Positions 33,063 to 63,327 of a stretch of DNA of 64,000 nt are shown here, piece by piece; within the stretch, counting starts at the first letter, position 1, and every line of letters begins with the position of its first letter. A model generated the notes under the pieces. The model saw only the letters and a program-made list of their open reading frames with translations, ran no database searches and was not told the origin of the DNA. Both the position numbers and the translations under genes were made by a program. Source of the stretch: Microbacterium binotii (GTDB lineage: Bacteria > Actinomycetota > Actinomycetes > Actinomycetales > Microbacteriaceae); NCBI RefSeq assembly GCF_021398715.1, contig NZ_CP090347.1, positions 2,604,001 through 2,668,000 of the forward strand. The letters run 5' to 3'.

Positions 33063-33116
33063 GACGATCCTCCGGCGGACTCTTGGGCGGTCTCGGGCGG
33101 GCGTGCGAGAACAGGG

Positions 33117-33145
33117 GATGTCCTCCCTCGGGCAGGGAGGACATC
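33117..33145. promoter_or_regulatory. 12-bp inverted repeat in the giant-gene 5' region
   Basis: GATGTCCTCCCT pairs perfectly with AGGGAGGACATC across five bases, 55-83 bases upstream of the ATG at 33062. It may be a leader hairpin or an operator. It lies about 105 bases before the divergent lipoprotein gene. Confidence 0.6.
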
Positions 33146-33191
33146 TCAGGCTCTCGTTCGGACCGAGCGTCCAGCCGGGTGAGCCGGGTAT

Positions 33192-33210
33192 TTCACCCGC
33201 CCTTTCACCC
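33192..33210. promoter_or_regulatory. TTCACCC-N5-TTCACCC direct repeat
   Basis: Two TTCACCC words are spaced 12 bases apart, 130 bases upstream of the giant-gene ATG (seen as GGGTGAA on its strand). The same pair with the same period lies 131 bases upstream of the 38-residue gene at 36527. Confidence 0.5.
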
Positions 33211-33249
33211 GCATCCGATGCCGACGCAGGCACCTGCGCCGTGCACGGT

Positions 33250-44064: not shown

Positions 44065-44141
44065 GTGCCCGAACTCCTGCAGAACCGCCACCCGCAGCCG
44101 AATACAGCCCCGAAGCGCCCCATCTGCAGGAGTTCGGGCAC
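44065..44141. repeat. CCGAACTCCTGCA inverted repeat, copy 1
   Basis: Perfect 19-bp arms (44065-44083 and 44123-44141), GTGCCCGAACTCCTGCAGA and its complement, flank a 39-base centre. It lies in the 388-base gap 43997-44384, which otherwise holds only copy 2. Confidence 0.85.
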
Positions 44142-44230
44142 GCCCGACGCCGCACCCGGGGGACGGATGCCGAACGCGACCCCGGCCGCACCCCGGGCTG
44201 CGTGCCGCCGTCTGCCACCCACCCCCGGCA

Positions 44231-44303
44231 GCCCGAACTCCTGCAGAACCGGCACCCGCAGCCGCATCCAGCCCCGGACCGCCCCATCTGCAGGAGTTCG
44301 GGC
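44231..44303. repeat. CCGAACTCCTGCA inverted repeat, copy 2
   Basis: Perfect 17-bp arms (44231-44247 and 44287-44303) flank a 39-base centre that closely resembles that of copy 1. The same CGCCCGACGCCGCACCC follows both, so the pair looks like a tandem duplication with a unit of 166 bases. Confidence 0.85.
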
Positions 44304-44384
44304 ACGCCCGACGCCGCACCCACCCGAGTCAGGGAACGGCGCAGGCGCTCTCGACCGGCACGCGGATCGGGCTCGCGGCCCGAG

Positions 44385-45668
44385 TCATCCGCGGAGGGCT
44401 GCGATGGGCTCGATGCGCGCGGCGCGCCGCGCAGGCAACCAGCCGGCGGCGAGCCCCACGACGGCGCCGAGGAAGGCCCCACCGACGGCGACCAGCGGGT
44501 TGATCACCGGACTCCACCCCGCGATCACCGAGACCAGGACCACCGAGAGCACCGCCACCGCCGAGCCCATGATCCCGCCGAGCATTCCGATGATCGCGGA
44601 CTCCGCGATGAACTGCCCCGCGATCTGCCGCGGGGTCGCGCCCAGCGCCCGCCGCAGTCCGATCTCGGGCGTGCGCTCCATCACCGAGAGCAGGGTGACG
44701 TTGGCGATGCCGAGCCCTCCCGCGAGGAGCACGATGACACCGAGCGCGATGAAGACGACGTTCACGTCGGCCTGCACGTTCTGGCTCAGGTCACTGCGTC
44801 CGCTGGGAGCGGCCACCTTGATCTGGTCCGGGGCGTCGGGGGCCAGGGCGAGCGGGGCCTGCTCGCCGATCTGCGGCCCCGCCCCCACGACGACGCGTGC
44901 CTGGATGCTGCCGGGAGCCGCCAGCGAGAAGTCGGCGCGCGCGGTGCCGACCGGGATGATGACCGCGTCCTGCAGGTCCGCGCGCCGCTCGAAGGAGTCG
45001 ACGATGCCGATGACGGCATACGCCAGCCCGTCGATGAAGATCGAGGGCTGGCTGTCGACGCGATTGATGGCGAGCCGGTCCGCCTCCCGCGCCCCGAGCA
45101 CCGCGACGCGGTCGCCGCGCACATCGTGCCCGCCGTCGAACATGCGCCCCTCGACGACCCGGCCACCCAGCGCATCGAGCAGACCCGAGGATGCGGCGAC
45201 GACCGGAGCGGGTGCCGAGGATGCGGCAGAGGGGTCGTACACGGGCACCGCGGTGATCGCGGAGCCCGCCGGAAGCGTCACCTCGGCGAGGGTCGCTGCG
45301 GCGACCACGCCCGCGAGTCGCTCGACGCGCTCGGCGCCGTCCCAGGGCAGGCGCGCGGTGGCGACGGAGGCGCCGGACTGCGTGCGTGCCTCGGCCGGCG
45401 TGATCTCCACACGTGTGGCCGCCGCCTGATCGAACTGGCGAGCGATCTGACCCGCGGCCGTCTGCGCGAACCCGAGGGTCGCGACGAGGGCGCCGATGCC
45501 GAGCACGGTGCCTGCGATGGTCATGATGAGCCGCGCGGGGCGCGAACCGATGTCGGCGGTCGCCTCGGCGACGAGGTCCTGCGACGTGAAGCGGTCGGCA
45601 CGGGGCGTGGGCGGCACCAGCGCGCTGAGGTCGACGCGCTCCCGGGCGGCGGCACGGTGGCGTCTCAT
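44385..45668 (-). CDS. MacB/FtsX-type ABC transporter permease
   Basis: The 427-residue protein has one N-terminal span (about 45-70), a periplasmic-type MacB core domain, and three C-terminal spans with the FtsX motif ERTPEIGLRRALGATPRQI. The last span ends GWLPARRAARIEPIAALRG, typical of these permeases. Its ATG overlaps the ATPase stop. With the ATPase and the fusion-like protein it forms a MacAB-type unit that probably moves a peptide or lipoprotein outward. Confidence 0.92.
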   Translation of the reverse strand: MRRHRAAARERVDLSALVPPTPRADRFTSQDLVAEATADIGSRPARLIMTIAGTVLGIGALVATLGFAQTAAGQIARQFDQAAATRVEITPAEARTQSGASVATARLPWDGAERVERLAGVVAAATLAEVTLPAGSAITAVPVYDPSAASSAPAPVVAASSGLLDALGGRVVEGRMFDGGHDVRGDRVAVLGAREADRLAINRVDSQPSIFIDGLAYAVIGIVDSFERRADLQDAVIIPVGTARADFSLAAPGSIQARVVVGAGPQIGEQAPLALAPDAPDQIKVAAPSGRSDLSQNVQADVNVVFIALGVIVLLAGGLGIANVTLLSVMERTPEIGLRRALGATPRQIAGQFIAESAIIGMLGGIMGSAVAVLSVVLVSVIAGWSPVINPLVAVGGAFLGAVVGLAAGWLPARRAARIEPIAALRG

Positions 45669-46390
45669 GCCACCTCGCTCAGGCGGCCGTCGGCGATCCG
45701 CACACGGCGGCTCGCCCGCGCGGCGACGGCGTCGTCGTGCGTGATGACGATGAGGGTGAGCCCGTCGGCGCGGAGCTCGTCGAAGAGGTCCATGACCTCG
45801 TCGGAGGTGCGGCGGTCGAGGTTGCCCGTGGGCTCGTCGGCGAGCAGCAGGCTCGGCCGACTGACGACCGCGCGCGCCACGGCCACGCGCTGGCGCTCAC
45901 CGCCGGAGAGCAGCCCCGGCAGGAAGCCGGTGCGTCCGCCCAGCCCCACCCGGTCGAGCGCGGCACGCGCACGATCCTCGCGCTCACCGCGCGGCACGCC
46001 GCTGTAGAGCATCGGCATCAGCACGTTGTCGAGCACGGTACGCCGCGACATGAGGTGGAAGGCCTGGAACACGAACCCGATCCGGCGCGCCCGGACGGCG
46101 GCTCTGCTGTCCTCGTCGAGGGATGCGGTGAGCACGCCGTCGAGGTGGTACTCCCCGACGCTCGGTCGGTCGAGCAGGCCCAGGATGCTCAGCATCGTGG
46201 ACTTTCCGGAGCCGCTGGGACCGACGATGGAGACGTAGTCGCCCCGCTCGACCGTGAGGTTGATCCCCTTCAGCGCCTGCACCTCCGGAGGGCCGGGGAA
46301 GGACCGGGTGACATCGCGCAGCTGCACGAGCGGCGCCGCCGAGCCCGAGTCGATCCCGGCCGCATCCGTCACGACCGTGGTCTGAGTCAT
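45665..46390 (-). CDS. MacB/LolD-type ABC transporter ATPase
   Basis: The 241-residue protein has Walker A GPSGSGKST, the signature LSGGERQR, Walker B LLLADEP followed by TGNLD, and H-loop THDD. The ADEPTGNLD form is typical of LolD/MacB ATPases. It overlaps both neighbours by four bases (ATGA), so the three genes are translated as a unit. Confidence 0.95.
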   Translation of the reverse strand: MTQTTVVTDAAGIDSGSAAPLVQLRDVTRSFPGPPEVQALKGINLTVERGDYVSIVGPSGSGKSTMLSILGLLDRPSVGEYHLDGVLTASLDEDSRAAVRARRIGFVFQAFHLMSRRTVLDNVLMPMLYSGVPRGEREDRARAALDRVGLGGRTGFLPGLLSGGERQRVAVARAVVSRPSLLLADEPTGNLDRRTSDEVMDLFDELRADGLTLIVITHDDAVAARASRRVRIADGRLSEVA

Positions 46391-48012
46391 CGTCCGACCA
46401 CGACCAGGTCGCCCTCGCCGACGGCGCCCTCGAGCGGCGAGATCTCCACCGCGCCGCTGGCGGCGAGGCCCGTCTTCACGGTGACCAGGCGGGTCTTCGC
46501 GTCGGGGTCGCGGGGGTCGCCTTCGACGACCTCGACCCGCGCCTCGCCGCCGGGCCCCGCCGTCAGGGCGGCGACCGGCACCGAGAGGACCTCGCCCTCG
46601 GTCGCGCCCACGGGGATCGCGACGCGCACGTTGGATCCCTGCATCTGCTGGATCTGCTCGGGCGTCAGCGGGTCGGGCTCCAGCTCGATCGACCAGCGCC
46701 CCGACGAGTCCTTGCTGGTGCTGGGGGCGAGAGCGGTGATGACAGCGCGGTGGGGCGTTCCGTCGGGCAGCTCGAAGCTCGCCTCGCCGCCCACCTGCAA
46801 CAGGGCCGCATCCGCTTCGCCCGCCGACCCGGTGAGGCGCACGGTGGCGCCGGAGACGGTCATCGCGGCGCCCTGCAGCACCGCGCCGCGGGTGACGTTG
46901 ACCGTATCGACACGACGCGGCAGGCCCGTCAGGTACAGCACCTCGGACGAGGGCAGGAAGGCCATGGAATCCTCGCGCGCACGCTGCAGATCCTGCTGCG
47001 CCTGCTGCACCTGAACGTTCGCGGCGTCGATGGCCGCGCGCTGCGCGGAGGTGTCCGCGGGCGCATCCAACTGCTGACGCTGCAGCTGAGTCAGCGCGAG
47101 CTGATCCTGTGCCGCGGCGATCTCGGATGCGTTCCCCTTGGCGATCGCATCGTTCACCGCGCGCTGCGCCGCCGCCACCTCGTTGTCCGCCTGCTTGATC
47201 GCGACAGGATCGGCTCCCGACTGCGCCTTGCGCAGATCTGCCTGCGCCGCGGCGACCGCCTGCTGGGCCGAGCGCACGCCGGCTTCGGCGGCGCTCACGG
47301 CCTGGGCGGCCCCCTCATCCCCGGAGGGCGCCGGGTAGCCGACGGCGGCGTACAGCGCCGTGATGCCGGCGGATGTCTGGGCGTCGAACACGTTCGAGGC
47401 GGGGTCTCCGCCGTCGATGCCGACGCTGCGCAGCGCGTTCTTGAGCTGCACGACATCGGGCCCCGAGACGCCGAAGCGCAGGCTCCGATACGCGGGCAGG
47501 TCGCCGGGCAGCACGATCACGGGACGCCCCGCGACCTCCAGCGCGATCGACAGCGCGTTCAGCTCGGTGCCCACCTCGGGCACCTGACCGGTGACGACGG
47601 CGGGCCCCGACAGGGTGGCCGTGTCGATGGTCACCTCGACCGCGTCCGCATAGCCGACATCGGCTCGGATCGTCACGTCGTTGCTCAGCTCGCCGAACTC
47701 CACCGGAACCGTGATGAGTCCGGGCTCCGGCGCGTCGGCGCGGGATGCGGCCTCCACCGGTGAGACGACGAACGTCCCCACGAGCAGTCCGATCACGAGG
47801 CTCGCCACCGCGACGGCGGAGGTGATCCACAGCGGACGGTTGCCGCGGAACACGCGCCCCCACCCGCGCAGGGCGGCGAAGCGCCCACGGGCACCTCCCG
47901 CATCCTCCGCGTCGGTCGCGGCCGCGGCCGCGTCCTCGCCGAGCAGCTCGCGCGTGAGCGCGGAGTCGTCCGAGGCGTCGTCGGAGGCGGGATCGAGGTC
48001 CTTTCGCGCCAC
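46387..48012 (-). CDS. membrane-fusion-like protein with peptidoglycan-binding domain
   Basis: The 541-residue protein has a cytoplasmic acidic head, one span (about 62-82), a PG_binding_1-like domain (RSLRFGVSGPDVVQLKNALRSVGID, about 175-225), a long coiled coil (about 235-350, rich in Ala and Gln), and HlyD-like beta domains. This layout is the Gram-positive counterpart of MacA: the span and coiled coil contact the permease, and the PG-binding domain the wall. The GTG start lies five bases from the upstream lipoprotein stop. Confidence 0.88.
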   Translation of the reverse strand: MARKDLDPASDDASDDSALTRELLGEDAAAAATDAEDAGGARGRFAALRGWGRVFRGNRPLWITSAVAVASLVIGLLVGTFVVSPVEAASRADAPEPGLITVPVEFGELSNDVTIRADVGYADAVEVTIDTATLSGPAVVTGQVPEVGTELNALSIALEVAGRPVIVLPGDLPAYRSLRFGVSGPDVVQLKNALRSVGIDGGDPASNVFDAQTSAGITALYAAVGYPAPSGDEGAAQAVSAAEAGVRSAQQAVAAAQADLRKAQSGADPVAIKQADNEVAAAQRAVNDAIAKGNASEIAAAQDQLALTQLQRQQLDAPADTSAQRAAIDAANVQVQQAQQDLQRAREDSMAFLPSSEVLYLTGLPRRVDTVNVTRGAVLQGAAMTVSGATVRLTGSAGEADAALLQVGGEASFELPDGTPHRAVITALAPSTSKDSSGRWSIELEPDPLTPEQIQQMQGSNVRVAIPVGATEGEVLSVPVAALTAGPGGEARVEVVEGDPRDPDAKTRLVTVKTGLAASGAVEISPLEGAVGEGDLVVVGR

Positions 48013-48017
48013 CTCGG

Positions 48018-48989
48018 TCAGCTCGCCTGCTCGGCGGCCGCCTTGAGGGCGTCGAGGTCGGCCTTGTTGTCGGCGATGAACTGCTCCTCGAGCGCGAACT
48101 GCACCTTCTCGTACGCGTCTCGGTAGTCCGTCTTCTCACGGCAATCGAGGTCGGCGAGGGCGAGGGTGATCTCCTCTTCACCGAGCTCCTTGAGCTTCGG
48201 GTCGTCCTCGACGTACGCGGTCTGTCCGCTGTAGTACTCGTTCAGCTTGTCGGACATGCTCGTCTGCGCATCGCCCTGCTTGGCGAAGCCGGACTGGCCG
48301 GCGTCGGCCATGCAGGAGGCCCACTCGGCGTCGATCTTCGCGAAGCCCGGGTCGTCGGCCATCTTCGTGTAGAAGTCGTTGATGGCGTCGTTGATGCCCT
48401 GGAATTCCTCGTCCATCATCGGGTTGGCGCCGGACTCGTGCTGCGCCCAGCCCTGACATCCGGCCTTCGTCCAGTCGTACTCGTAGGAGCCGTCCTCGTT
48501 CAGCTCCTCCTCCGTGGGGGACGGACCGTACAGTGCCTCGTAGAACGCGGTCTGCTCCGACTCCGACAGGCTCGAGACGTAGTCCTGGTTCGGGTCGACG
48601 TACTGCTCCTGGTCCGTGGGCGTCTCGTCGCGGCCGGGGTAGTTGATCATTCCGTAGCCGTACTGGGTCACCCAGTCGCGGTCGTCCGGCTTCCACTCGA
48701 CGTCGCTGCTGCTGCTGAAGGACACCGATTGGATGTTGGGCGTGTAGTCGAAGCCTTCCTCCGACATGCACTGCGCCACGAGCTCCTCGGACTTCTTCTG
48801 CTGCTCGGTGAAGCGCGCTTCCTGCTCCTCGGTGGACAGATCGCCGCCCCAGATCGAGGAGAGGTAGGCCGACAGCGGCGACTCGGGGCGGTCATCGCCC
48901 TTGTCTCCGTCCGCGGCCGAGCAGGCCGTGAGAGCGAGCGCCGCGACAACGGCGAGCGGCGCGATGGCGAGCAGGCGTGAACGAACCAT
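48018..48989 (-). CDS. acidic lipoprotein heading the MacAB-like operon
   Basis: The 323-residue protein has lipobox LTAC (Cys at about 23) and a very acidic, Tyr- and Glu-rich mature region with at least four further Cys residues (AQCMSEEGF, AGCQGW, ASCMADAG, DLDCREK), which could pair as disulfides. I recognise no family. A GGGGGAA site precedes the ATG. It is the first gene of the unit with the fusion protein, ATPase and permease, so it may be their substrate receptor or substrate. Confidence 0.78.
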   Translation of the reverse strand: MVRSRLLAIAPLAVVAALALTACSAADGDKGDDRPESPLSAYLSSIWGGDLSTEEQEARFTEQQKKSEELVAQCMSEEGFDYTPNIQSVSFSSSSDVEWKPDDRDWVTQYGYGMINYPGRDETPTDQEQYVDPNQDYVSSLSESEQTAFYEALYGPSPTEEELNEDGSYEYDWTKAGCQGWAQHESGANPMMDEEFQGINDAINDFYTKMADDPGFAKIDAEWASCMADAGQSGFAKQGDAQTSMSDKLNEYYSGQTAYVEDDPKLKELGEEEITLALADLDCREKTDYRDAYEKVQFALEEQFIADNKADLDALKAAAEQAS

Positions 48990-49118
48990 GATTCCCCCAT
49001 AGGATCACCGGCGCCGATGCGACGACGCACATGCTCAGCTTAGGGATCGCATAGCGTCTTCCCATCTGGGAAGACGCCGCGCATCCTTCCCACACCATCG
49101 GATAGGGTGTCGCACCGC

Positions 49119-50303
49119 TCAGATCAGGGGCAGTCGCGCGCGCAGAACCGCGCCGCCGGTCGCCCCGGCGGCGAGCTCGAGCGCGCCCCCGACGACGTCG
49201 AGCTGCTGGTGCAAGCGGGCGAGTCCCGACAGCCGGACGTCCGCGGCGGGCGAGGCGCCGTCGCTGACGACCTCGAGCAGCAGCACTCCGCGCATCACGC
49301 GCGCGGCGAGACGGATGCGGCGCGCACCGCCGTGGCGCAGCGCGTTGGTCTGCCCCTCCTCCAGCACCCGCACCACGACGACCCGCATCCGCTTGTCGAT
49401 GCGCGCACCCAGCACGGCGAGCAGCGGCGACGCGTCGTCGATGATCTCAACGTGCGCGGGAGTACGCGCCGCGAGCGCACGCACGGCGGGCGCCAGCCCC
49501 CGGTCGAGATCGACGGGGTACAGCCGTTCGCTCAGGGCACGCAGCTCGTGCTCGCGCAGGCGGGCGAGCGTGTCGGCCACCGCGACGATGCGCTGCGGCA
49601 TCGGAGCGGCGGCAGCGATGTCGCGCAGCTCCGCCTCCAGCACGACGAAGGTGCCCTGCACGGAGCCGTGGATCGTGGCGGCCACGTCCTTGCGCACGCG
49701 CAGTTCCTCGGCGCGGACATCGTCCATGAGGGTCAGCGCCCGCTCCTGCGCCTCGATGCGGGTCAGATCCGCCTCGCGCGCGCGACGCCAGACGTCCGCG
49801 AACTGGAGTCCGCTGCCGAGCGCGAGCAGCGCCAGGAGGAAGGTCATCGCCGTCTCCAGGCCGACCACGCGCACGGCGCCTTCGGACGCTGTATCCACCA
49901 CGCCGCTGAGCACCTGCAGGAGGGATCGGCTGAGGGCTGCGACGACTCCGAGCGAGAGCACGATGGCGGACCGCGCGCGCGTGCCGCGCCGTTCCGGATG
50001 CAGCAGGAACGCCCCGCCGACCACGATCGCGACGGCGGTGAAGTTGTACGCCCACCGCAGCACGATCTCGGAGAACGGATCGGGGGCGAGCTGGCGCATG
50101 TCGTCGGAGACCACTCCGAGCACGAGCACGGCCTGCACGCTGGCGAGCACCGCACCCAGACCCGCCACCAGGGCGGTCGCGCCGACCATGATGCGCGAGA
50201 GCGCGCGCTCTTCGGATGCGGCCGCCCGCGCCACCGGGGAGATGCTCACCGATCCGACGCGGCGGGCACGGCGGATCCATCGGTCGGAGGTGGGCGCGAT
50301 CAC
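49119..50303 (-). CDS. orphan membrane sensor histidine kinase with HGSVQG box
   Basis: The 394-residue protein has about four to five membrane spans (about 35-185), a linker, H-box DVAATIHGSVQGT (His212), N-box EGQTNALRHG and a degenerate G-box VVSDGASP. It closely resembles the kinase at 16652-17764 (HGTLQG, GVSNALRHG). The GTG at 50303 overlaps the stop of the small membrane gene (GTGA). No response regulator adjoins it, so it may signal to a distant one such as that at 16.0 kb. Confidence 0.82.
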   Translation of the reverse strand: MIAPTSDRWIRRARRVGSVSISPVARAAASEERALSRIMVGATALVAGLGAVLASVQAVLVLGVVSDDMRQLAPDPFSEIVLRWAYNFTAVAIVVGGAFLLHPERRGTRARSAIVLSLGVVAALSRSLLQVLSGVVDTASEGAVRVVGLETAMTFLLALLALGSGLQFADVWRRAREADLTRIEAQERALTLMDDVRAEELRVRKDVAATIHGSVQGTFVVLEAELRDIAAAAPMPQRIVAVADTLARLREHELRALSERLYPVDLDRGLAPAVRALAARTPAHVEIIDDASPLLAVLGARIDKRMRVVVVRVLEEGQTNALRHGGARRIRLAARVMRGVLLLEVVSDGASPAADVRLSGLARLHQQLDVVGGALELAAGATGGAVLRARLPLI

Positions 50304-50434
50304 TCTCGTTCGCGACGCCCGCGCACGACGATGATCACCAGCGTGGCGAATCCGAGCACGCCCAGCGCGCCCCACACCCACGGCAGACCTTGTGTCGCCG
50401 TGGCCGCCCATGCGGCAGCATTCGCGAGAGACAT
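50300..50434 (-). CDS. 44-residue membrane protein upstream of the orphan kinase
   Basis: The protein starts MSLANAAAWAATATQG, has one hydrophobic span (about 17-37) and ends VVRGRRERE. GGAAGG lies seven bases before the ATG, and the stop overlaps the kinase start, so it is very likely translated. It may be a small partner of the kinase; no family is recognised. Confidence 0.6.
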   Translation of the reverse strand: MSLANAAAWAATATQGLPWVWGALGVLGFATLVIIVVRGRRERE

Positions 50435-50637
50435 CGCACGCCCTTCCCCAGACAGGCGACTCCCCCAGGAGACCGCCGTGACGAATCTAGCCTCGACGCG
50501 GCCGGCAGGAGTGTGCGGCTGAGTAGTTTCCCCCGGCACCGCCGACATCCGAGAAGTCCGATGAGCGTTATCGTTCACCGGCCCGAAATAAGGCCTGTGG
50601 CAGGATGGTGCGCGATACTCCCGATCTGAGAGGCACC

Positions 50638-52095
50638 ATGGAACTCAGCGACTACATCCGGGTTCTGCGGAAGAACTGGCTGATCATCGTCGTCGCAACT
50701 CTCGTCGGGCTGGGGGCGGCCGCCGGATACTCGCTGACCCGCACGCCCCTCTATGAGTCGCAGGCCTCGGTGGTCGTCTCGACACAGTCCAGCGGCAGCG
50801 TGCAGGAGATCTCGCAGGGATCGAACTTCACCCAGCAGCGCGTGGCGACCTATGTCAACGTGGCGACCAAGCAGCTCGTGCTCGATCCCGTGATCCGCGA
50901 CCTGGGACTCGACATGAGCGCCGGAGCCCTCGCCAAGAACGTGAGTGTCAGCAGCGTGCTGAACACCACCTTCATCACGATCGCGGTGACCGATGCCGAC
51001 CCGGTCAAGGCCGCCGACATCGCCAATGCCGTCGCCGCCCAGCTGCCGCTCGCGGTCGAGGAGATCGAGCCGTCCACGGGAGGCGAGAGCCCGGTGCGCC
51101 TCACGACGGCGAGCACGGCGGTCCCCACGAACGTTCCGGTCAGCCCGAACGTCCCTCTGAACCTCGCGCTCGGTGCACTCATCGGTCTCGCCGTCGGCAT
51201 CGGTATCGCCGTGCTGCGGACGGTGCTCGACACCCGCATCCGCACCATCCGCGATGTCAACCAGATCACCGACCGCCCGATCCTCGGCGCGATCCCGTTC
51301 GACGCGAAGGCGGCGGAGCGGCCGATCATCATCCAGGCCGACCCGTACAACACGCGCTCGGAGTCCTTCCGGGCCCTGCGCACCAACCTGCAGTTCATCG
51401 AGATGGACGGCGGTCACTCCTTCGTGATCACCTCCTCCATCCCGAGCGAGGGCAAGTCCACGACGACGGTGAACCTGGCGATCGCCCTCGCGGATGCCGG
51501 GAAGCGCGTCGCTCTCATCGACACCGATCTGCGCAAGCCCAAGGTCGCCGAGTACCTCGGTATCGAGGGCGGCGCGGGCCTCACGGATGTGCTGATCGGT
51601 CGCGCGAAGGTCGGCGACGTGATGCTCCCCTGGGGCAAGCGCCCGCTGTTCGTCCTGCCCGCGGGCAAGGTGCCGCCGAACCCCAGCGAGCTGCTCGGTT
51701 CGCGCCAGATGGCACAGCTGCTCGAGGCGATCAGCCGCGACTTCGACGTGGTGCTTCTCGATGCTCCCCCGCTGCTGCCGGTGACGGATGCGGCGATCCT
51801 GTCGCGCGAGACGACGGCGGCGATCCTCGTCGTCGCCGCCGGTCGCACGACGACGGGTCAGCTCACCGCGGCACTCACGGCTCTCGAGACGGTCGATGCG
51901 AAGGTCGGCGGCATCGTCATGAGCATGGTCCCCACCCGCGGACCGGATGCGTACGGGTACGGCTACGGATACGGATACGGCGGCTACGGGACGTACGGCA
52001 CGGCTCCGGAGCCGGCTCCCGCGAAGGCGAAGAACTCACGCAAGCGGGCGCCGGAGGACGACGCCGGCCTCGACGAGCTCGTGAAGGGCTCCTGA
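50638..52095 (+). CDS. Wzc-like polysaccharide copolymerase and tyrosine kinase
   Basis: The 485-residue protein has an N-terminal Wzz domain (MELSDYIRVLRKNWLIIVVATLVG) with two spans near residues 15-35 and 175-195, then a CpsD-type kinase with Walker A IPSEGKSTTTVN, Walker A' LIDTDLRKPK and VVLLDAPP. The C-terminal Tyr cluster (YGYGYGYGYGGYGTYG) is the expected autophosphorylation site. ATG 50638 has AGAGG five bases upstream and fits homologues. No polysaccharide glycosyltransferases are in the window, so it acts on a locus elsewhere. Confidence 0.93.
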   Translation: MELSDYIRVLRKNWLIIVVATLVGLGAAAGYSLTRTPLYESQASVVVSTQSSGSVQEISQGSNFTQQRVATYVNVATKQLVLDPVIRDLGLDMSAGALAKNVSVSSVLNTTFITIAVTDADPVKAADIANAVAAQLPLAVEEIEPSTGGESPVRLTTASTAVPTNVPVSPNVPLNLALGALIGLAVGIGIAVLRTVLDTRIRTIRDVNQITDRPILGAIPFDAKAAERPIIIQADPYNTRSESFRALRTNLQFIEMDGGHSFVITSSIPSEGKSTTTVNLAIALADAGKRVALIDTDLRKPKVAEYLGIEGGAGLTDVLIGRAKVGDVMLPWGKRPLFVLPAGKVPPNPSELLGSRQMAQLLEAISRDFDVVLLDAPPLLPVTDAAILSRETTAAILVVAAGRTTTGQLTAALTALETVDAKVGGIVMSMVPTRGPDAYGYGYGYGYGGYGTYGTAPEPAPAKAKNSRKRAPEDDAGLDELVKGS

Positions 52096-52114
52096 ACAGA
52101 GAGGCGTTCGTGCG

Positions 52115-53005: not shown

Positions 53006-53036
53006 CCCAGCCGCATCCGGTCCCGGCGAGGTACGA

Positions 53037-53105
53037 CCGAACTCCTGCAACACCCGCCACTCAGCGCCCTCCGCCTACCCCAGACGCACATCTGCAGGAG
53101 TTCGG
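53037..53105. repeat. CCGAACTCCTGCA inverted repeat, copy 3
   Basis: Perfect 13-bp arms (53037-53049 and 53093-53105) flank a 43-base centre unlike that of copies 1 and 2. It lies between convergent genes ending at 53005 and 53159. Confidence 0.8.
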
Positions 53106-53158
53106 CACGCCACGGAAGTGGAGGGCGCACCGATCTCGCCCTCCACCTCCGCCCTCGC

Positions 53159-56434: not shown

Positions 56435-56504
56435 CGTGACGTCCTTGTCGTGAGGGGATGCGGAAGAGGGGTGGGCGCCGCGTGCCGCGGCGCCCACCGG
56501 GTTG

Positions 56505-57863
56505 TCATCGGAACAGTGCGTTGATCTGGTCGTTGGCGCTGGTGAAGGCGCCCGCGTCCGAGCCGCCCTTCAGGAACGACTCGATCGTCGCGGTCATGGT
56601 GTCGTTGACGTCCGACCAGTGGTCGGCGATCGGAAGGAGCTTGGTGGTGCCGTCGGTCACCTGGACGGTGAAGCCGCTGACGTCCCAGCCCTTGTCGGCG
56701 AACGCGGTCTCCGCCTTCTCGGTGGAGCTCTGGATCGCCGGGAACACGACGGCGGCGGCGGCCACGACGTCCTGGCATGCGCTGGAGCCGAGGTAGCTGA
56801 CCCACTGCCATGCCGCATCCGGCTTGCTGGTTCCCGCCCAGATGCCATCCGAGAGCCCGTTGAAGACGCTGGCGCGTTCCCCGTCGGGGCCGATGGGCGT
56901 CGGCACGACCAGCGTGGGCGTGTCCGTCTGCCCGAGGTACGAGGCCGTCATCCAGCTGCCGTCCGTGACCATGGCGTAGCGACCCGCGAGGTAGCCGTTG
57001 AGCGGGTCCTGCTCGGACAGCGCGATGTCGACGCTGGGCATGTAGCCCTTGTCAGCGAGGCTCTTGTACCAGGTCATCGTCTCGACGAACGACGGGTCGT
57101 CGAAGTTCCAGGTAGTGGTCCAGGGCGTCTTGTCACCGAAGTACCAGTCGTTGCCGAGAGCGTAGGGGGCCCAGGTCTGCTGACCGCTCGCGTTCAGCCC
57201 GTTGCCGCTCAGCGCGAGTCCGTAGACCGCCACCTTCGACTTGTCGAAGCCGGGCTCGTCGCCGTGGACGCCGTTCGCGTCGACCGTCAGTCGCGCGAGC
57301 GCGGCCTCGAAGCTGCCGCCGTCGGCGGGGTTCCACTCCAGCGATCCCAGTTGCTCGGCGGTCAGGCCCGCATCCGTCGCCATCTGCTGGTTGTAGAAGG
57401 TGGCGACGGTGTCGAAGTCCTTCGGCAGGCCATAGCGACCGCCCTCCTGGTCGGTCCAGAGCTCGGCGAGTCCGTCCTGATAGATGTCGAGGTCGATCGA
57501 GTCGGCTTCGACCCTGTCGCTGATGTCGAGCAGCTGACCCTGGGAGACGAACTGTGGGAAGTAGGAGAGGTGATCGGCGAACACGTCCGGCGCGGTGCCC
57601 GAGGCGAAGCCCGTGGTCAAGCCCTGCCAGTAGTCCGCCCAGCCGAACTGCTCGATCTTGACGCTGATGCCGCTGGTCTGCTCGAAGTCGGTCGCGCACT
57701 GCTGGTAGGCGGCCTGCTGGTTGCTGTCCCACAGCCAGTACGTGATGGAGTCGTCGGAGCCTGCCGCGTCACCGCCCCCGGCGCATCCGGCGAGGGCGAG
57801 AGGGACGGCGACGGCGACCGCGGTGACCGCAACGGTGCGGCGCACACGAGGAGAATGACGCAT
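56505..57863 (-). CDS. ABC sugar transporter solute-binding lipoprotein
   Basis: The 452-residue protein has lipobox LAGC (Cys at about 27) and a family 1 solute-binding fold: SITYWLWDSNQQAAYQQCATDFEQTSGISVKIEQFGWADYW, then GTAPDVFADHLSYFPQFVSQGQLLDIS. It binds an oligosaccharide and delivers it to the two permeases. AAAGG lies seven bases before the ATG at 57863. It follows the permease genes, whereas in most such operons the binding protein comes first. Confidence 0.94.
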   Translation of the reverse strand: MRHSPRVRRTVAVTAVAVAVPLALAGCAGGGDAAGSDDSITYWLWDSNQQAAYQQCATDFEQTSGISVKIEQFGWADYWQGLTTGFASGTAPDVFADHLSYFPQFVSQGQLLDISDRVEADSIDLDIYQDGLAELWTDQEGGRYGLPKDFDTVATFYNQQMATDAGLTAEQLGSLEWNPADGGSFEAALARLTVDANGVHGDEPGFDKSKVAVYGLALSGNGLNASGQQTWAPYALGNDWYFGDKTPWTTTWNFDDPSFVETMTWYKSLADKGYMPSVDIALSEQDPLNGYLAGRYAMVTDGSWMTASYLGQTDTPTLVVPTPIGPDGERASVFNGLSDGIWAGTSKPDAAWQWVSYLGSSACQDVVAAAAVVFPAIQSSTEKAETAFADKGWDVSGFTVQVTDGTTKLLPIADHWSDVNDTMTATIESFLKGGSDAGAFTSANDQINALFR

Positions 57864-57933
57864 GACATGCCTTTCGTGAGGGTGTTTCTTCGGGTCGACC
57901 GAGCGACGGCGCCGTCGGTCAGGCGTACAGCGG

Positions 57934-58878
57934 CTACTTGATGCCCGAGTAGCCGAGGTTGTCGACGAGCTTTCGTCCGAAGAGGACGAACAGCACGAAG
58001 ATGGGCAGCGCCGCGACGAGGGTTCCCGCCATGAGTCCCGCCCAGTCGGGCCCCGTCTGCGGTGTCTGCGAGCGGAAGATGCCGAGGGCGACGGTGAGCA
58101 CACGGGATTCGTCGGCGCGGCCGACCAGCAGCGGCCAGAAGTACTCGCCCCAGGCAGTGATGTAGGTCAGCAGCGCGAGCGTGAAGATCGGCGTCGACGA
58201 CATCGGCAGCACGATGCGGAAGAAGATCCGGAAGTGGCCCGCGCCGTCGATCTTCGCCGACTCCTCGACCTCGCGGCTGATGCCGAGGAAGAACTGCCGC
58301 ATGAAGAAGATCGCGAACGGCGTCATGAAGAAGAACGGCAGGATGATGCCGGCGAGCGTGTTGAGCAGCCCCAGGTCGCGGATCAGGATGAAGTTGGGGA
58401 GCTGCACGAAGATCGGCGGGATCATCAGCGCCGTGAGGAAGAGGAAGAAGACCGCTTCCCTCCCCCGCCAGTGCAGTCGCGCGAAGGCGTAGGCAGCCAT
58501 GGACGAGAACAGCACCTGCCCGAGGGTGATCACGGTGGCGACGATGACGGTGTTGCGCAGGTACAGCCAGAAGTCGATCGAACCGGTGGTTCCCCCCTCT
58601 GCCGCCGCCTGCTCGGGTGTCGCAAGCCCCAGCACACGTGCGAAGCCGCCCCAGCTGAAGTCCACCGGGAGCAGACTGCCCGCGTTCGTGTACAGCGCGG
58701 TGTTCGTAGACAATGCCGTGCGCAGCATCCAGTAGAACGGGAAGAGCGTCACGACGAGAAGGACTCCCAGGGCCCCCCACGCGAGGATGCGCCCCACGGG
58801 CAGCGGCTTCCGCGGTCGGCGTCGGACGGGGGATGCGGGTTCGGTCGCCGCCGGGCGCGGCGTCATCACAGCGGTCAT
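57934..58878 (-). CDS. ABC sugar transporter permease, MalG-type
   Basis: The 314-residue protein has six spans and the EAA loop EESAKIDGAGHFRIFFRIVLP, which contacts the ATPase. AAGGAG lies six bases before the ATG. An insertion with AAAEGGTTGSIDFWLYLRNT precedes the conserved core, as in many MalG-type proteins. The ATPase partner is not in the window; a shared MsiK-like ATPase elsewhere is likely in Actinobacteria. Confidence 0.94.
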   Translation of the reverse strand: MTAVMTPRPAATEPASPVRRRPRKPLPVGRILAWGALGVLLVVTLFPFYWMLRTALSTNTALYTNAGSLLPVDFSWGGFARVLGLATPEQAAAEGGTTGSIDFWLYLRNTVIVATVITLGQVLFSSMAAYAFARLHWRGREAVFFLFLTALMIPPIFVQLPNFILIRDLGLLNTLAGIILPFFFMTPFAIFFMRQFFLGISREVEESAKIDGAGHFRIFFRIVLPMSSTPIFTLALLTYITAWGEYFWPLLVGRADESRVLTVALGIFRSQTPQTGPDWAGLMAGTLVAALPIFVLFVLFGRKLVDNLGYSGIK

Positions 58879-58887
58879 GGCGGCTCC

Positions 58888-59823
58888 TTAGGCGAGGTCC
58901 GACTGGTTGGAACGCATGATCTTCAGCTGCGCCCACGCCACGGCGGCGAGGACGACGAGCAGGAAGACCGACATCGCCGACGCGTATCCCAGGTCGAAGC
59001 GTTCGAAGGCCTGTTGGTAGATGTAGTAGTAGATGACGCGCGTCGCGTTGACCGGGCCGCCCTGCGTGGTGACGGCGACGGTGTCGAAGATCTGGAACGA
59101 GCCGACCACCGTGATCACCAGCACGAGAGCGAGCACGGGACGCAGCAACGGCAGCGTGATCGAACGGAACATCCGCGTCTCCGATGCGCCGTCGAGTGCC
59201 GCGGCCTCGTACAGCTGGGTGGGGATGGTCTGCAGCCCCGCGAAGATGAGCAGCGCCGTGTAGCCGACGTAGCGCCACACGTTGATCAGGGCGATCGTGG
59301 GGATGGCCAGCTGCTCGCTGCCGAAGAACGCGACGCGATCGGTCCCGAGCCAGTCGAAGACGACGTTGATGATGCCGGTGGAGTAGTCCATCATCCAGAA
59401 CCAGACGAGGGCGACGACGACGTTCGCGACCAGGTACGGCAGCAGGATGATGCCGCGGATGACGGCGGAGCGGGTCAGGCGGTGCATGAGCACGGCGATG
59501 CCCACCGCCAGCACCGTCTGCACTCCGATGTTGATGACGACGTACTCCGCCGTCACTCCGAGGGCGTTCCAGAACAGCGGGTCCTGGAACATCCGCTCGT
59601 AGTTCTCCGTGCCGATGAACTCGCCCGCGCCGATGAGGTTCTGATCGGTGAAGCTGAACCACACGCCGCGCAGCGAGGGGATCAGGTAGAAGGCCAGGAA
59701 GCCGATGGCTGCGGGCGCGATGAACAGCATGGCGACGCGGAAGTCGCCACGATGCCGGCGGCGCGACCCGGGCGCGATGATCGCACGGGTGTCGAGTGCG
59801 CGGGTCGTGATGCTCCGACTCAT
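58888..59823 (-). CDS. ABC sugar transporter permease, MalF-type
   Basis: The 311-residue protein has six spans and the EAA loop YEAAALDGASETRMFRSITLP. Its ATG overlaps the alpha-galactosidase stop as ATGA, so the two are co-translated, and the MalG-type gene follows nine bases later. A cytoplasmic N-terminus of about 30 residues is basic. Confidence 0.94.
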   Translation of the reverse strand: MSRSITTRALDTRAIIAPGSRRRHRGDFRVAMLFIAPAAIGFLAFYLIPSLRGVWFSFTDQNLIGAGEFIGTENYERMFQDPLFWNALGVTAEYVVINIGVQTVLAVGIAVLMHRLTRSAVIRGIILLPYLVANVVVALVWFWMMDYSTGIINVVFDWLGTDRVAFFGSEQLAIPTIALINVWRYVGYTALLIFAGLQTIPTQLYEAAALDGASETRMFRSITLPLLRPVLALVLVITVVGSFQIFDTVAVTTQGGPVNATRVIYYYIYQQAFERFDLGYASAMSVFLLVVLAAVAWAQLKIMRSNQSDLA

Positions 59824-61994
59824 GACAGTGCCTCCACGTGCAGCAGGGCGACCTGGTCGGGATCCAGAGCGGGGACATGCACCCCGACCTCGGCCAGCGC
59901 CGCGCCCGTCAGAACCGTGCCGTCGATCCACCAGGAGGGATGGATGCGCTCGTCGTACGGTTCGAGCGCGGGCCCGGAGGCCCGCAGCCGGTAGCGCCGT
60001 CTGGGGTCCAGGCCGGGCAGACGGACCCGCCCCACGGGCCAGGTGATGTGACGCTCCCGCAGCGTCACGAGGTAGAGCGCCTCGTTGAGGTCGGCGGCGA
60101 CCGCACCGTGCAGCCAGAGGTCACCGTCTTCGAGCGCGCGGCGCACGGTGGTTCCGCCGTGGATGAGCGGACGCATCCGCTTGTAGTACGCGACCCACTC
60201 CGCCAGCTCGTCCCGTTCTTCGGGCGTCGCGGTGCTGAGGTCCCATTCGATACCGAAGTGCCCGAAGAGCGACGTCGCCGCGCGGAAGGAGAGGTCCAGA
60301 CGTCGACGCGTCGTGTGCGCGCGGTCGGCGCCGATGTGGCTGCCGACGAGCTCCGGCGGCAGCAGCTGCGCCGTCCACCGCTGGATCTGCTGACGCTCGC
60401 GCGCATCGATGCAGTCCGAGGCCCACACCCGGTCGGTGTGCTCGAGGATCTCGAGGTCCACGCGCGCGCCGCCCGACGAGCACGACTCGATCTCGAGATC
60501 CGGTACAGCCCGACGGATCTCATCCAGCAGCCGATACGCGGCGTGGGTCTGCGCGTGCACCCCGGCACGACCCGTGCGCGTGGAGCCGGCGTCGATGAGG
60601 TCGCGGTTGTGGTCCCACTTGATGTAGGAGATCCCGTACTCCTGCACGAGCGCCACGACCTGATCGCGCACGTGGACGAACGCGCCCGGATGCGTCAGAT
60701 CCAGCACCTGCTGATGGCGGAAGGGGATGGGCAGCCTTCCGGGCACCTGCAGCATCCACTCCGGATGTGCGCGCGCGAGATCCGAGTCCGGGTTCACCAT
60801 CTCGGGCTCGAACCAGAGTCCGAACTCCATCCCGCGAGCGCGGACGCCGTCGACGAGGTGCCGGAACCGGCCGTCTCCCCAGACCTGCTCCCCCAGCACC
60901 CAGTCGCCGAGGCCGGAGGTGTCGTCTCGACGGCTGCCGAACCAGCCGTCGTCGAGCACGAACCGCTCCACTCCGACGCTCTGCGCGAGATCCGCGAGCT
61001 CGAGCAGCCGGTCGAGATCGTGGTCGAAGTACACCGCCTCCCAGACGTTCATGACGACCGGGCGCGCTGAGCGCGGGTGATGCGGTCGGGAGCGGAGATG
61101 GGTGTGGAAGCGTGCGGCGACCGCATCCAGGCCCGCGCCGTATGCGGCGTAGATCGCCGGAGCGGCGTAGGACTCGCCCGGCGCGAGTTCGATCTCCCCG
61201 GGCAGCAGCAGCTCGCCGCCGAGTAGCAGCCGCTCGCCGGAGAACGCGCGTTCGGCGAGCGTGCGGTGGTTGCCGCTGAACGCGACATGCAGCCCCCAGG
61301 CCTCCCCGCGGTCGAAGTCGAGGTCGGGTGTCCCCGCCATCAGCACGAGTGCCGCATCCGCTCCCGTGCGACCGTGCCGACCCTCGCGCAGGTGGGTGCC
61401 GACCGTGAACGCACGCGTCTGGGGAACCCGCTCCTTCGCCCATCGCCCGGCGAGATCGAACAGCAGATCGGCACGGGTGGGCACCGGCATCGCGGAGGTC
61501 AGGGCGTCGAGGGTGTACGCGTCGGCGCCGACGTTCTTCAGCTCGGACGCGAGGCGCACCAGTCCGCTCGGGAGCAGCTCGATCGCGAGCCGCAGTTCGA
61601 GACCGACGAACTCGTCGCGGGCGACGACCAGGATGCGTCCGCCCTCGGGGCGATGCTCGATCTCCGTCGAGACCGGGACGAAGGACGGCGACCACGCGCG
61701 GCCGGCGCGGTGACCGGACACGCCCGGCGTTCCGGTCCACCCCGCCGAGTTCTCCGGGACGAGCGATACCCGCACCGGCACATCGGCGCCGTTCGTCGCC
61801 CGCGGCGGCGCGGCATGGCGGGCGAGCTCGTCCGCATCCGCGTCGTCGAACGCGTCCGAACCCCAGTGCACGATGCGCGGCAAGGAGCGGGAGGGAAGGG
61901 ACACGACGAGCCCGACACCCCCCGCGACGAACCTGACGTCTTCGCCCATCGAGATCGGAGCGGCGTCGCCCTCGTCGGTTGCCTGCATCGTCAC
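59820..61994 (-). CDS. GH36 alpha-galactosidase
   Basis: The 724-residue protein releases alpha-linked galactose. It has the N-terminal beta-sandwich, the TIM barrel with DDGWFGSRRDD, nucleophile Asp461 in YIKWDHNRD, ESCSSGGARVD, and acid/base Asp527 in WASDCIDARE, then a C-terminal sandwich. No signal peptide is seen, so it acts inside on imported sugar. GTG 61994 is chosen for the GAGG site ten bases upstream; ATG 61988 is possible. It is first in the operon with the ABC permeases and glycosidase. Confidence 0.95.
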   Translation of the reverse strand: MTMQATDEGDAAPISMGEDVRFVAGGVGLVVSLPSRSLPRIVHWGSDAFDDADADELARHAAPPRATNGADVPVRVSLVPENSAGWTGTPGVSGHRAGRAWSPSFVPVSTEIEHRPEGGRILVVARDEFVGLELRLAIELLPSGLVRLASELKNVGADAYTLDALTSAMPVPTRADLLFDLAGRWAKERVPQTRAFTVGTHLREGRHGRTGADAALVLMAGTPDLDFDRGEAWGLHVAFSGNHRTLAERAFSGERLLLGGELLLPGEIELAPGESYAAPAIYAAYGAGLDAVAARFHTHLRSRPHHPRSARPVVMNVWEAVYFDHDLDRLLELADLAQSVGVERFVLDDGWFGSRRDDTSGLGDWVLGEQVWGDGRFRHLVDGVRARGMEFGLWFEPEMVNPDSDLARAHPEWMLQVPGRLPIPFRHQQVLDLTHPGAFVHVRDQVVALVQEYGISYIKWDHNRDLIDAGSTRTGRAGVHAQTHAAYRLLDEIRRAVPDLEIESCSSGGARVDLEILEHTDRVWASDCIDARERQQIQRWTAQLLPPELVGSHIGADRAHTTRRRLDLSFRAATSLFGHFGIEWDLSTATPEERDELAEWVAYYKRMRPLIHGGTTVRRALEDGDLWLHGAVAADLNEALYLVTLRERHITWPVGRVRLPGLDPRRRYRLRASGPALEPYDERIHPSWWIDGTVLTGAALAEVGVHVPALDPDQVALLHVEALS

Positions 61995-62021
61995 AGCGTC
62001 TTCGCCTCTTCCCACCATTGG

Positions 62022-62041
62022 TCTGCAAACGTTGGTCAGAA
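62022..62041. promoter_or_regulatory. LacI-type operator O1 of the sugar operon
   Basis: TCTGCAAACGTTGGTCAGAA contains AACGTT with the central CG typical of LacI-family sites. It lies just downstream of the -10 box on the minus strand, where a bound repressor would block transcription. Confidence 0.75.
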
Positions 62042-62069
62042 CGTAGCACGCAGCGGCGAGCCTCTGCAA
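62040..62069 (-). promoter_or_regulatory. promoter of the sugar operon
   Basis: TTGCAG (62069-62064), an 18-base spacer and TACGTT (62045-62040) form a plausible promoter. The -35 box lies inside operator O2 and the -10 adjoins O1. Confidence 0.55.
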
Positions 62070-62082
62070 ACGTTGGTCAGAA
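62063..62082. promoter_or_regulatory. LacI-type operator O2 of the sugar operon
   Basis: This is an identical copy of the 20-base O1, exactly 41 bases away (about four helical turns), so both would face the same side of the DNA. It overlaps the predicted -35 box. The LacI product of the adjacent gene is the expected ligand. Confidence 0.75.
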
Positions 62083-62139
62083 TCGTGTCAGCGGGCGCGC
62101 TACAGCACCCCACGACGTCGAGACGCGCGAGGTCGGCGC

Positions 62140-63150
62140 TCAGCGGGCGCTTGCGGCACTCTCGCGCACGACGAGGCGCGGGAGCACCGCAGAGTCCTCC
62201 GGCGCGCGCCCGCTGAGCATCCACTCCTCCAGCAGGGCGAAGGTGCGCCGTCCGAGATCGGTGAAATCCTGCGCCACGGTCGTCAAGGCGGGCACCCACA
62301 TCTGTGCGAAGGGCTGATCGTCGAAGCCGACGACGCTCACGTCGTCGGGCACCCGGCGTCCCCGCTCCTGCAGCGCCCGTGCTGCACCGATGGCCAGCTC
62401 GTCGTTGCCGCACAGGAGGGCCGTGACGGCGGGGTCGTCCGCGATGGTCAGCGTGGCCTCGTAGCCCGACATCGGCGAGTACGCCGCGCGCACGACGGCG
62501 GGGACCGGCGCGCCTGCCTCCTCGAGCGCGCGTCGCCATCCCCACTCGCGTCCGGTGCCGGCACGGGTCGCGGGGATGGCCAGATGGTGCACCGTGCGGT
62601 GCCCGAGCGAGAGAAGGTAGCGCGTCGCCTCGTACCCGCCGGCCTCGTCGTCGAGGAACGCGTGCGGCCGGTCGCCCCGAGCCCGCCGCGCACCCGCGGC
62701 AGCCACGACCGGGAGATTCTCGGGCATGGCGTCGAGGGTCGCGACACCGACCTCGTCGAACTCGATGACGATCGCTCCCGCGAGTGGTTGCGACAGCGTC
62801 GATGCGATCGCCCGCTGGATCGCAGACTCGTCGTCGCTCTCCACGACCGCGATGAGGATGACGTAGTCCGCCGCCCGCGCGGCCTCCTCGATGCCCTGCA
62901 GTGTCGCCGCGTATCCGAACCGGATCGTGTTGCGCGCCAGCACGGCCACAGTGGACCGCTTGCCGCTGACCAGCGCCTGCGCCGCGGCGTTCGGCCGATA
63001 GTCCAGTTCCCGGACGGCGGCCATCACCTTCTCGCGCAGCCGCGCGCTGACGGGCGTGCGCCCCGAGATCACCCGCGACACCGTCGAGACGCTCACGCCG
63101 GCGCGTGCAGCCACGTCGATGAGGCCGGCCGGGCGATGCTCGAAGGTCAT
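62140..63150 (-). CDS. LacI-family transcriptional regulator of the sugar operon
   Basis: The 336-residue protein has an N-terminal LacI helix-turn-helix (LIDVAARAGVSVSTVSRVISG) and hinge (RPNAAAQALVSGKR), then a periplasmic-binding-like domain with GFDDQPFAQ. The ATG at 63150 is six bases after a TAGCCT box; GTG 63156 is possible but would lie inside that spacer. It sits directly upstream of the sugar operon with the same orientation and two operator copies between. It probably represses the operon until a galactoside binds. Confidence 0.95.
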   Translation of the reverse strand: MTFEHRPAGLIDVAARAGVSVSTVSRVISGRTPVSARLREKVMAAVRELDYRPNAAAQALVSGKRSTVAVLARNTIRFGYAATLQGIEEAARAADYVILIAVVESDDESAIQRAIASTLSQPLAGAIVIEFDEVGVATLDAMPENLPVVAAAGARRARGDRPHAFLDDEAGGYEATRYLLSLGHRTVHHLAIPATRAGTGREWGWRRALEEAGAPVPAVVRAAYSPMSGYEATLTIADDPAVTALLCGNDELAIGAARALQERGRRVPDDVSVVGFDDQPFAQMWVPALTTVAQDFTDLGRRTFALLEEWMLSGRAPEDSAVLPRLVVRESAASAR

Positions 63151-63162
63151 CCCCACAGGCTA
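63151..63162 (-). promoter_or_regulatory. leaderless -10 box of the LacI gene
   Basis: TAGCCT (63162-63157) is six bases before the ATG at 63150. Confidence 0.5.
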
Positions 63163-63251
63163 GCCACGTGGATCGGCGCCGACCGCATCCGCGCCGGTGC
63201 GGATTCGGCGGCGCCGGCGGGCACGGTGCGCTGCCGACTGCGGTCGGGCCG

Positions 63252-63327
63252 CGCCCGAACTCCTGCATATCGAGCCCCCGCGCCGCCCGCTAGCCCGACC
63301 CGCGCCGCATGCACAGGAGTTCGGGCG
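63252..63327. repeat. CCGAACTCCTGCA inverted repeat, copy 4
   Basis: Perfect 14-bp arms, CGCCCGAACTCCTG (63252-63265) and its complement (63314-63327), flank a 48-base centre. It lies in the 322-base gap 63151-63472, which otherwise holds the LacI promoter, a partial repeat of the glmS-flanking family and a terminator. Confidence 0.75.

What the first reader, a model, noticed from the sequence alone, without database searches (positions are those of the whole stretch)
44065..63327. Family of intergenic inverted repeats with CCGAACTCCTGCA arms, four copies in 19 kb
Copies at 44065-44141, 44231-44303, 53037-53105 and 63252-63327 share arms based on CCGAACTCCTGCA and its complement (perfect pairing over 13-19 bp) around variable centres of 39-48 bases. 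All lie in gaps between genes, always beyond a gene end. This looks like a REP- or MITE-type element, but no known actinobacterial family comes to mind. Arms are kept while centres drift, which suggests selection on the arms or mobility by them.
Basis: seen in the sequence. Interest (0 to 1): 0.7.

Follow-up and report, generated by a model that had tools for sequence, protein, structure and literature searches.

The report
Paired DNA repeats with matching nuclease
Dozens of short paired repeats scattered between genes in these bacteria go together with a DNA-binding, nuclease-like protein gene that is itself bracketed by the same repeats, and the two repeat halves sit almost only whole turns of the DNA helix apart, which points to an undescribed protein-plus-repeat system that bends DNA into tiny loops.

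Summary
The four inverted repeats are 4 of 26 copies in the genome. Arms are N4-AACTCCTGCA/TGCAGGAGTT-N4. At orthologous loci in three relatives the arms differ by 3.1%, centres by 26.5%, flanks by 22.9%; centres drift in sequence but hardly in length.

Core length is quantised: of 358 distinct elements 175 are 62-64, 163 are 72-76, 16 are 83-87, none 65-71; in a wider count 881 in-phase against 47 off-phase hits. A/T content repeats about every 10-10.75 bp. That suggests DNA bent between two bound proteins.

The likely partner is a 279-aa protein encoded outside the window: AbiEi-antitoxin-like winged helix plus Vsr-like nuclease domain. Of 90 relatives' genes 70 have such repeats beside them by a strict rule, 44 on both sides, against 0 of 3,600 shuffled flanks. 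Arm sequence, spacing class and two protein residues change together.

No Y1 (RAYT) transposase was found, and no recent dispersal. It works like REPIN-RAYT with another enzyme and double-stranded geometry. Binding, cutting and benefit are inferred.

The parts
44069..44137 (.). element 1: arms 44069-44081 and 44125-44137, 43-base centre; first of a tandem pair
   Evidence: orthologues in L250 (G368), L264 (G378), L272 (G035)
44233..44301 (.). element 2: arms 44233-44245 and 44289-44301, 43-base centre; second of the tandem pair (108-nt repeat unit, 164 bp apart, 88% identical)
   Evidence: orthologues as for element 1
53037..53105 (.). element 3: arms 53037-53049 and 53093-53105, 43-base centre; between convergent genes
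   Evidence: orthologue in L250 (G368) with a 44-base centre; not found at the corresponding place in G035, where the flank differs
63255..63324 (.). element 4: arms 63255-63267 and 63312-63324 (right arm 2 mismatches), 44-base centre
   Evidence: two elements at the matching place in L251 (G368) and L283 (G378)

Best explanation
The elements are paired binding sites of a cognate protein: an AbiEi-type winged helix and middle domain followed by a Vsr/homing-endonuclease-like domain. In this genome its gene is at 2,490,660-2,491,496, outside the window, next to trpS. One protomer binds each arm; two protomers on one face of the helix meet across a bent DNA loop, so spacings of about 5, 6, 7 (rarely 8) turns work and the loop's sequence is free apart from phased A/T. 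Gene and element family are inherited vertically as a pair and change specificity together. The enzyme most likely nicks or cuts at the paired arms, giving slow local (tandem) duplication and upkeep of the repeat population, as is proposed for RAYTs and REPINs. SHOWN by computation: the link of gene and repeats, their co-divergence, the quantised spacing, the A/T phasing, and the constraint on arms and length. INFERRED: binding, dimer and loop, cutting, and any benefit to the cell. My odds: cognate paired binding about 0.85; cutting as the upkeep step about 0.45.
For: 26 own copies, arms 55-57 bases apart. Core lengths of 358 distinct elements: 62-64 175, 65-71 0, 72-76 163, 78-79 2, 83-87 16, 98-100 2; A/T period 10.0-10.75 in classes 63, 64, 73, 74, 0 of 300 shuffles each. 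In-phase 881 hits (3 lengths) against off-phase 47 (7 lengths) in 70 genomes picked for carrying the gene (summed in 86). Orthologous pairs: arms 20/650, centre 246/929, flank 581/2534 differences; spacing equal in 20 of 25 and off by one in 5. Gene flanked by elements in 70 of 90 loci, 44 on both sides, 0 of 3600 shuffled flanks; regular layout, median 104 bp before the start (n=53) and 11.5 bp after the stop (n=42). Arm class follows the protein tree: 24 changes, shuffles mean 49.7, minimum 43; length class 2 changes, shuffles 14.6, minimum 11. Residues 85 and 86 go with arm bases 9 and 8. Structure model pLDDT 91.5 matches AbiEi and, more weakly, Vsr and a homing endonuclease; acidic and His residues of the nuclease site are invariant in 43 proteins. 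Genomes with 10 or more model hits carry a close relative (E<=1e-70) in 38 of 45, genomes with none in 34 of 214.
Against: No binding, bending, cutting or movement was observed. G009, G024 and G278 have 10 or more model hits but no relative at 1e-30. At that looser cut-off 128 of 214 genomes without model hits also carry a relative; many relatives pair with other arms that the model misses, but this was not checked genome by genome. The length gap is strongly depleted, not empty: by eye about 8 of the 47 off-phase hits have matching inner arms (five at 65, one each at 66, 68, 71). The steps of the ladder are nearer 11 than 10.5, and class 86 (n=9) peaks at 9.25. On well-supported branches only 2-3 independent pairs remain for the residue test.
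Confidence: 0.7

Rival explanations
1. Host-owned site: the same protein binds the elements, but as an architectural or road-block factor at gene ends (insulation, termination or chromosome folding); the nuclease domain is used rarely or only for dimerisation. Copies persist because each one helps the cell.
For: Individual copies are under constraint at orthologous places. 44 of 97 copies lie in convergent and only 2 in divergent gaps, against 17.2 and 13.1 kb of such gap among 59.8 kb (orthologous copies are not independent). No recent dispersal.
Against: Whole families switch arms with the protein, which is odd for sites with local functions. Copy number differs widely between species (0 to 65). 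The nuclease site is invariant.
Confidence: 0.3
2. MITE or REP-type mobile DNA moved by a transposase.
For: Dispersed, intergenic, inverted ends, tandem clusters.
Against: No Y1 transposase in the genome. 0 of 1098 dispersed pairs share 70% of the centre. Elements are at orthologous places in three relatives. Other transposase families were not searched for.
Confidence: 0.08
3. RNA-level elements: transcribed hairpins acting as terminators or processing sites.
For: Gene 3' ends and paired changes in the arms.
Against: Spacing ladder and ~10-bp A/T phasing, and spacing that follows a protein clade, are not expected of an RNA loop. No Rfam family in the window at gathering scores.
Confidence: 0.06
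4. Plain operators: the protein is a transcription factor of AbiEi type and the dispersed elements are its regulon.
For: AbiEi proteins bind paired inverted repeats in their own promoter and bend DNA (PMC7319586, passages read). One element lies about 104 bp upstream of the gene.
Against: Dispersed copies avoid divergent gaps and are over-represented in convergent ones. A second element sits at the stop codon. The nuclease site is conserved.
Confidence: 0.12

Closest known systems
REPIN-RAYT systems (PMC3116915 and PMC8049555, passages read)
   Same: Paired inverted arms with a diverse spacer of set length, tandem clusters that include flanks, a gene with its own repeat type beside it, gene inherited vertically, tens of copies per genome.
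   Different: No RAYT. The protein here is AbiEi-like plus Vsr-like. REP arms form their own hairpins (recall), these arms do not. REPIN spacers are described as able to form hairpins; here the spacer shows helical length classes and A/T phasing.
AbiEi / Rv2827c antitoxins on their operators (PMC7319586, passages read)
   Same: Winged-helix fold, binding of two monomers to inverted repeats, DNA bending; the paper notes 3-bp and 13-bp gaps between repeats in two such operators.
   Different: No toxin gene was noticed beside P0001 in the flanks read (not searched for systematically). There is an added nuclease-like domain and a dispersed family of sites, not one promoter.
Vsr and EDxHD-type homing endonucleases (1cw0, 1vsr, 3r3p)
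   Same: Fold of the C-terminal domain, conserved acidic and His residues.
   Different: No dispersed cognate repeat family is known to me for these (recall).

Membership tests
REPIN-RAYT | cognate Y1 (HUH) RAYT transposase, PF01797 | tested here: not met
   0 matches in the own genome, 5 of 14 controls ring; other genomes not tested
REPIN-RAYT | two conserved inverted arms with diverse spacer of set length | tested here: met
REPIN-RAYT | partner gene flanked by its own repeat type | tested here: met
   70 of 90 loci by a strict rule, but with another protein family
REPIN-RAYT | evidence of excision or transposition | not testable with these tools
   no population reads; 0 of 1098 dispersed pairs with similar centres
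MITE | terminal inverted repeats of a known transposon, similar interiors, target-site duplication | tested here: not met
   interiors of dispersed copies unrelated; target-site duplications only looked for by eye in the flanks; transposases other than Y1 not searched
AbiEi type IV toxin-antitoxin | AbiEi winged-helix antitoxin fold | tested here: met
   AbiEi_4 in 33 of 43 relatives at E<=0.01; 6y8q is the best Foldseek hit
AbiEi type IV toxin-antitoxin | adjacent AbiEii (DUF1814) toxin gene | not tested
   no family search of the neighbours was run
Vsr/MTES_1575 endonuclease | REase-like fold with conserved acidic/His site | tested here: met
   MTES_1575 in 43 of 43 (P0001 itself scores 36.5 against a cut-off of 38.2); invariant E172, E176, D203, E213, D215, H220; Vsr hits
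Vsr/MTES_1575 endonuclease | DNA nicking or cleavage activity | not testable with these tools
   needs a bench assay

The most novel reading that the evidence does not exclude
A new class of vertically inherited, enzyme-maintained repeat populations on double-stranded DNA: an AbiEi-plus-Vsr-type nuclease reads two arms across a micro-loop whose size in helical turns is set by the protein lineage, maintains dozens of copies per genome, and switches specificity together with them through a small loop (residues 83-87; Arg85 with C at arm base 9, Gly86 with C at base 8). It may reach well beyond the family within the order and account for part of the many uncharacterised DUF559/AbiEi-type genes there.
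Probability: 0.45. Interest if true: 0.95.

Novelty: categorically new. Interest (0 to 1): 0.87.

Why it matters
If true it is an independent counterpart of REPIN-RAYT (a gene and a repeat population kept together for long times) built on a different enzyme. The spacing ladder reads protein geometry out of raw genomes, the residue-arm correlation is a testable recognition code, and a domain pair that databases list as of unknown function gets a concrete, testable role.

Tried and rejected
Rfam: no match in the window at gathering scores. Y1 transposase: none. NCBIfam: only a sub-threshold partial match. PADLOC: weak AbiEi and partial nuclease matches. IMG/VR scan: 8 contigs of mixed lengths 61-82, taken as chance, not studied further. 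Three of the 15 had lengths within 65-71 (L106, L146, L164: Selenomonadaceae, Geoglobus, Calditrichaeota). A specificity code in the wHTH helix: that helix is variable but its columns do not lead the ranking; residues 83, 85 and 86 do. GC skew of the centres by replichore: visible in many own copies, mixed elsewhere, not pursued. Clean empty sites: none seen where an element is missing, not systematic. The constraint count used 25 hand-chosen ortholog pairs; loci with ambiguous copy number or alignment (107932/109659, 1225783, 2490-2491, 2667255, 2721862, 2867 and 3043 kb, and one G035 pair at 198716) were left out. The first look at the gene locus used loci fetched because they hold elements, so it was biased; one search is the fairer test, though 5 of its 90 loci are the own genome and four relatives already known to carry elements.

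Literature: searches in an open-access library; none of the listed titles or abstract starts reports this link, and the arm 13-mer is in no held paper. Subscription journals are not covered. Papers seen: passages only of PMC7319586, PMC3710099, PMC3116915, PMC8049555; everything else only as listings.
Full report
WHAT IS THERE. The four inverted repeats are real and lie at the stated places. In the whole genome (3,290,652 bp, one contig) the paired arms occur 26 times; a pair at 317692 inside a called gene was dropped as chance. Consensus: N4-AACTCCTGCA-(g/a)aa ... ttc-TGCAGGAGTT-N4, arms 55-57 bases apart start to start in these copies.

SPREAD. With exact inner arms and gaps of 35-50 allowed, 11 of 148 genomes matched: the own genome, 10 of 88 others of the genus, 0 of 59 outside it; all printed matches (a partial list) have gaps of 42-44. 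A covariance model found matches in 152 of 366 genus genomes, with at most 13 candidates scored per genome and both strands counted. The own genus is therefore probably Microbacterium (inference; genome codes and names cannot be matched). The outer bases differ between species but match in both arms of a copy.

A LADDER OF LENGTHS. Longer gaps showed further classes. Over the loci held, 358 distinct elements (exact AACTCC..GGAGTT plus an arm-pairing rule) have core lengths 62-64 (175), 72-76 (163), 78-79 (2), 83-87 (16), 98-100 (2) and none at 65-71; orthologous copies that differ are counted separately. In 70 genomes picked for carrying the gene, the in-phase pattern (3 lengths) occurs 881 times and the off-phase pattern (7 lengths) 47 times (sums). 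By eye about 8 of those 47 have matching inner arms (five at 65, one each at 66, 68, 71), so the gap is depleted rather than empty. A/T content inside the centres has a best period of 10.0-10.75 bases in classes 63, 64, 73 and 74, above 300 of 300 shuffles each; class 86 (n=9) peaks at 9.25, also above its shuffles. This is expected if the DNA must bend smoothly between two proteins on one face of the helix.

SELECTION. Elements sit at orthologous places in G368, G378 and G035. In 25 hand-matched pairs, arms differ at 20 of 650 positions, centres at 246 of 929 and flanks at 581 of 2534; spacing is equal in 20 and off by one in 5, while 16 pairs have flank indels. So centres drift like the flanks, yet arms and length are held. 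Within four genomes, 0 of 1098 dispersed pairs but 31 of 74 pairs less than 1.5 kb apart share at least 70% of the centre: local duplication is seen, recent dispersal is not. Of 97 copies none is in a called gene; 51 are in tandem, 44 in convergent and 2 in divergent gaps, against 29.6, 17.2 and 13.1 kb of such gap in the same loci (home-made gene caller, orthologous copies not independent).

THE PARTNER GENE. A 279-aa gene at 2,490,660-2,491,496 has two elements on each side. Relatives with 39-100% identity lie beside elements in the loci, but those loci had been fetched for their elements. Domains: MTES_1575 (36.5 bits, cut-off 38.2), AbiEi_4 and DUF559, weak singly; over 43 relatives MTES_1575 matches 43, AbiEi_4 33 and DUF559 32. 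The structure model has mean pLDDT 91.5. Its best Foldseek hit is AbiEi (6y8q, E 3.4e-4); Vsr (1cw0, 1vsr) and the catalytic domain of I-Bth0305I (3r3p) follow at E 0.007-0.03. E172, E176, D203, E213, D215 and H220 are invariant in the 43 proteins. The family name comes from a large protein of Microbacterium testaceum (PMC3710099, passages).

THE LINK TESTED. Relatives (E<=1e-30) are in 253 of 366 genus genomes. I took the 30 best loci and 60 of the following ones, skipping some on short contigs. Under a strict rule 70 of 90 have an element within 800 bp, 44 on both sides; 0 of 3600 shuffled flanks do. Of the other 20, 19 show an inverted repeat in looser searches, many with a core shared by a protein clade (CACAACGTCG, CCGCGCTCCGGA) or present on both flanks; L328 shows none. 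The looser search also finds weak repeats by chance, so the firm figure is 70. The layout is regular: nearest element a median 104 bp before the start (n=53) and 11.5 bp after the stop (n=42). Downstream neighbours fall into two large groups (62 and 24 loci; trpS in 23 of the latter), so the gene is inherited in place. Arm class follows the protein tree (24 changes; 200 shuffles mean 49.7, minimum 43; 73 loci), and so does length class (2 changes; 300 shuffles mean 14.6, minimum 11; 70 loci; 50 of 51 multi-element loci hold one class). The tree is a quick one with 36 of 87 forks weak.

A POSSIBLE CODE. Ranking protein columns by information about the inner arm bases puts residues 85, 86 and 83 first (72 loci). 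Arg85 goes with C at arm base 9 (27 both, 2 Arg only, 5 C only, 43 neither) and Gly86 with C at base 8 (29, 5, 4, 39) in 77 of the 90 loci; loci with other or no cores were left out. Over independent pairs on all branches Arg85 follows in 7.8 and opposes in 0 of 13 (p about 0.008); Gly86 in 4.8 against 0.2 of 8 (p about 0.06). On well-supported branches only 2-3 pairs remain. This is a lead, not a proof.

RESULTS AGAINST. G009, G024 and G278 have 10 or more model hits without the gene at 1e-30, and 128 of 214 genomes without hits have a relative at that cut-off; at 1e-70 the contrast is 38 of 45 against 34 of 214. The steps of the ladder are nearer 11 than 10.5. Nothing shows binding, cutting or mobility.

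BEYOND. A profile of the protein finds homologues in 104 of 297 genomes of the order, in 33 of 94 genera. Of 30 loci scanned, the two from genus g39 have AACTCCTGCAA arms at core 83-84 on both flanks; L391 (own genus), L398 and L413 (other families) carry their own shared arms on both flanks; several others show nothing clear. In the own genome a second relative (2,190,083-2,190,844) has CATCTGCAC arms on both flanks, and all 12 exact copies found in five genomes are 77 bp although gaps of 45-70 were allowed. A third relative (2,241,950-2,242,723) has one 63-bp repeat on one side.

READING. By anatomy this works like a REPIN-RAYT pair, but the defining RAYT is absent from the own genome and the geometry is double-stranded. 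AbiEi proteins are known to pair on inverted repeats and bend DNA (PMC7319586, passages), which fits the first half of the protein; the second half looks like a working nuclease. I therefore propose paired binding across a micro-loop, with nicking or cutting as the upkeep step; only the binding logic is well supported, and a host function as a nucleoprotein site at gene ends remains a serious rival.

Noticed in passing
L031:3048-3101 (genome about 108047-108100): A second, unrelated 54-bp near-perfect palindrome (arms CCGCTCGCCTGTCACAGATCG); many partial matches on both strands are dispersed in G368, G378 and G035.
   Followed up: partly
L283:6440-6640 against window 53037 and 63255: In G378 the left flank of element 3 runs straight into elements that match element 4 of the window: about 10 kb between two elements is missing or elsewhere there.
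   Followed up: no
L414:986-1064 and L414:2030-2116 (genome about 2189985-2191115): A second relative of the protein in the own genome is flanked by its own element type, CATCTGCAC arms, 77 bp.
   Followed up: partly
window 26199-33233, minus strand: A 2344-aa open reading frame with about 1-kb internal repeats (direct repeats D1-D5); looks like a large repeat protein.
   Followed up: no
own copies, e.g. window 44085-44121, 53053-53089, 63271-63308: Centres of many own copies are C-rich on the plus strand right of 2.6 Mb and less so or G-rich left of 1.3 Mb; no copy was found between 1.23 and 2.49 Mb.
   Followed up: no
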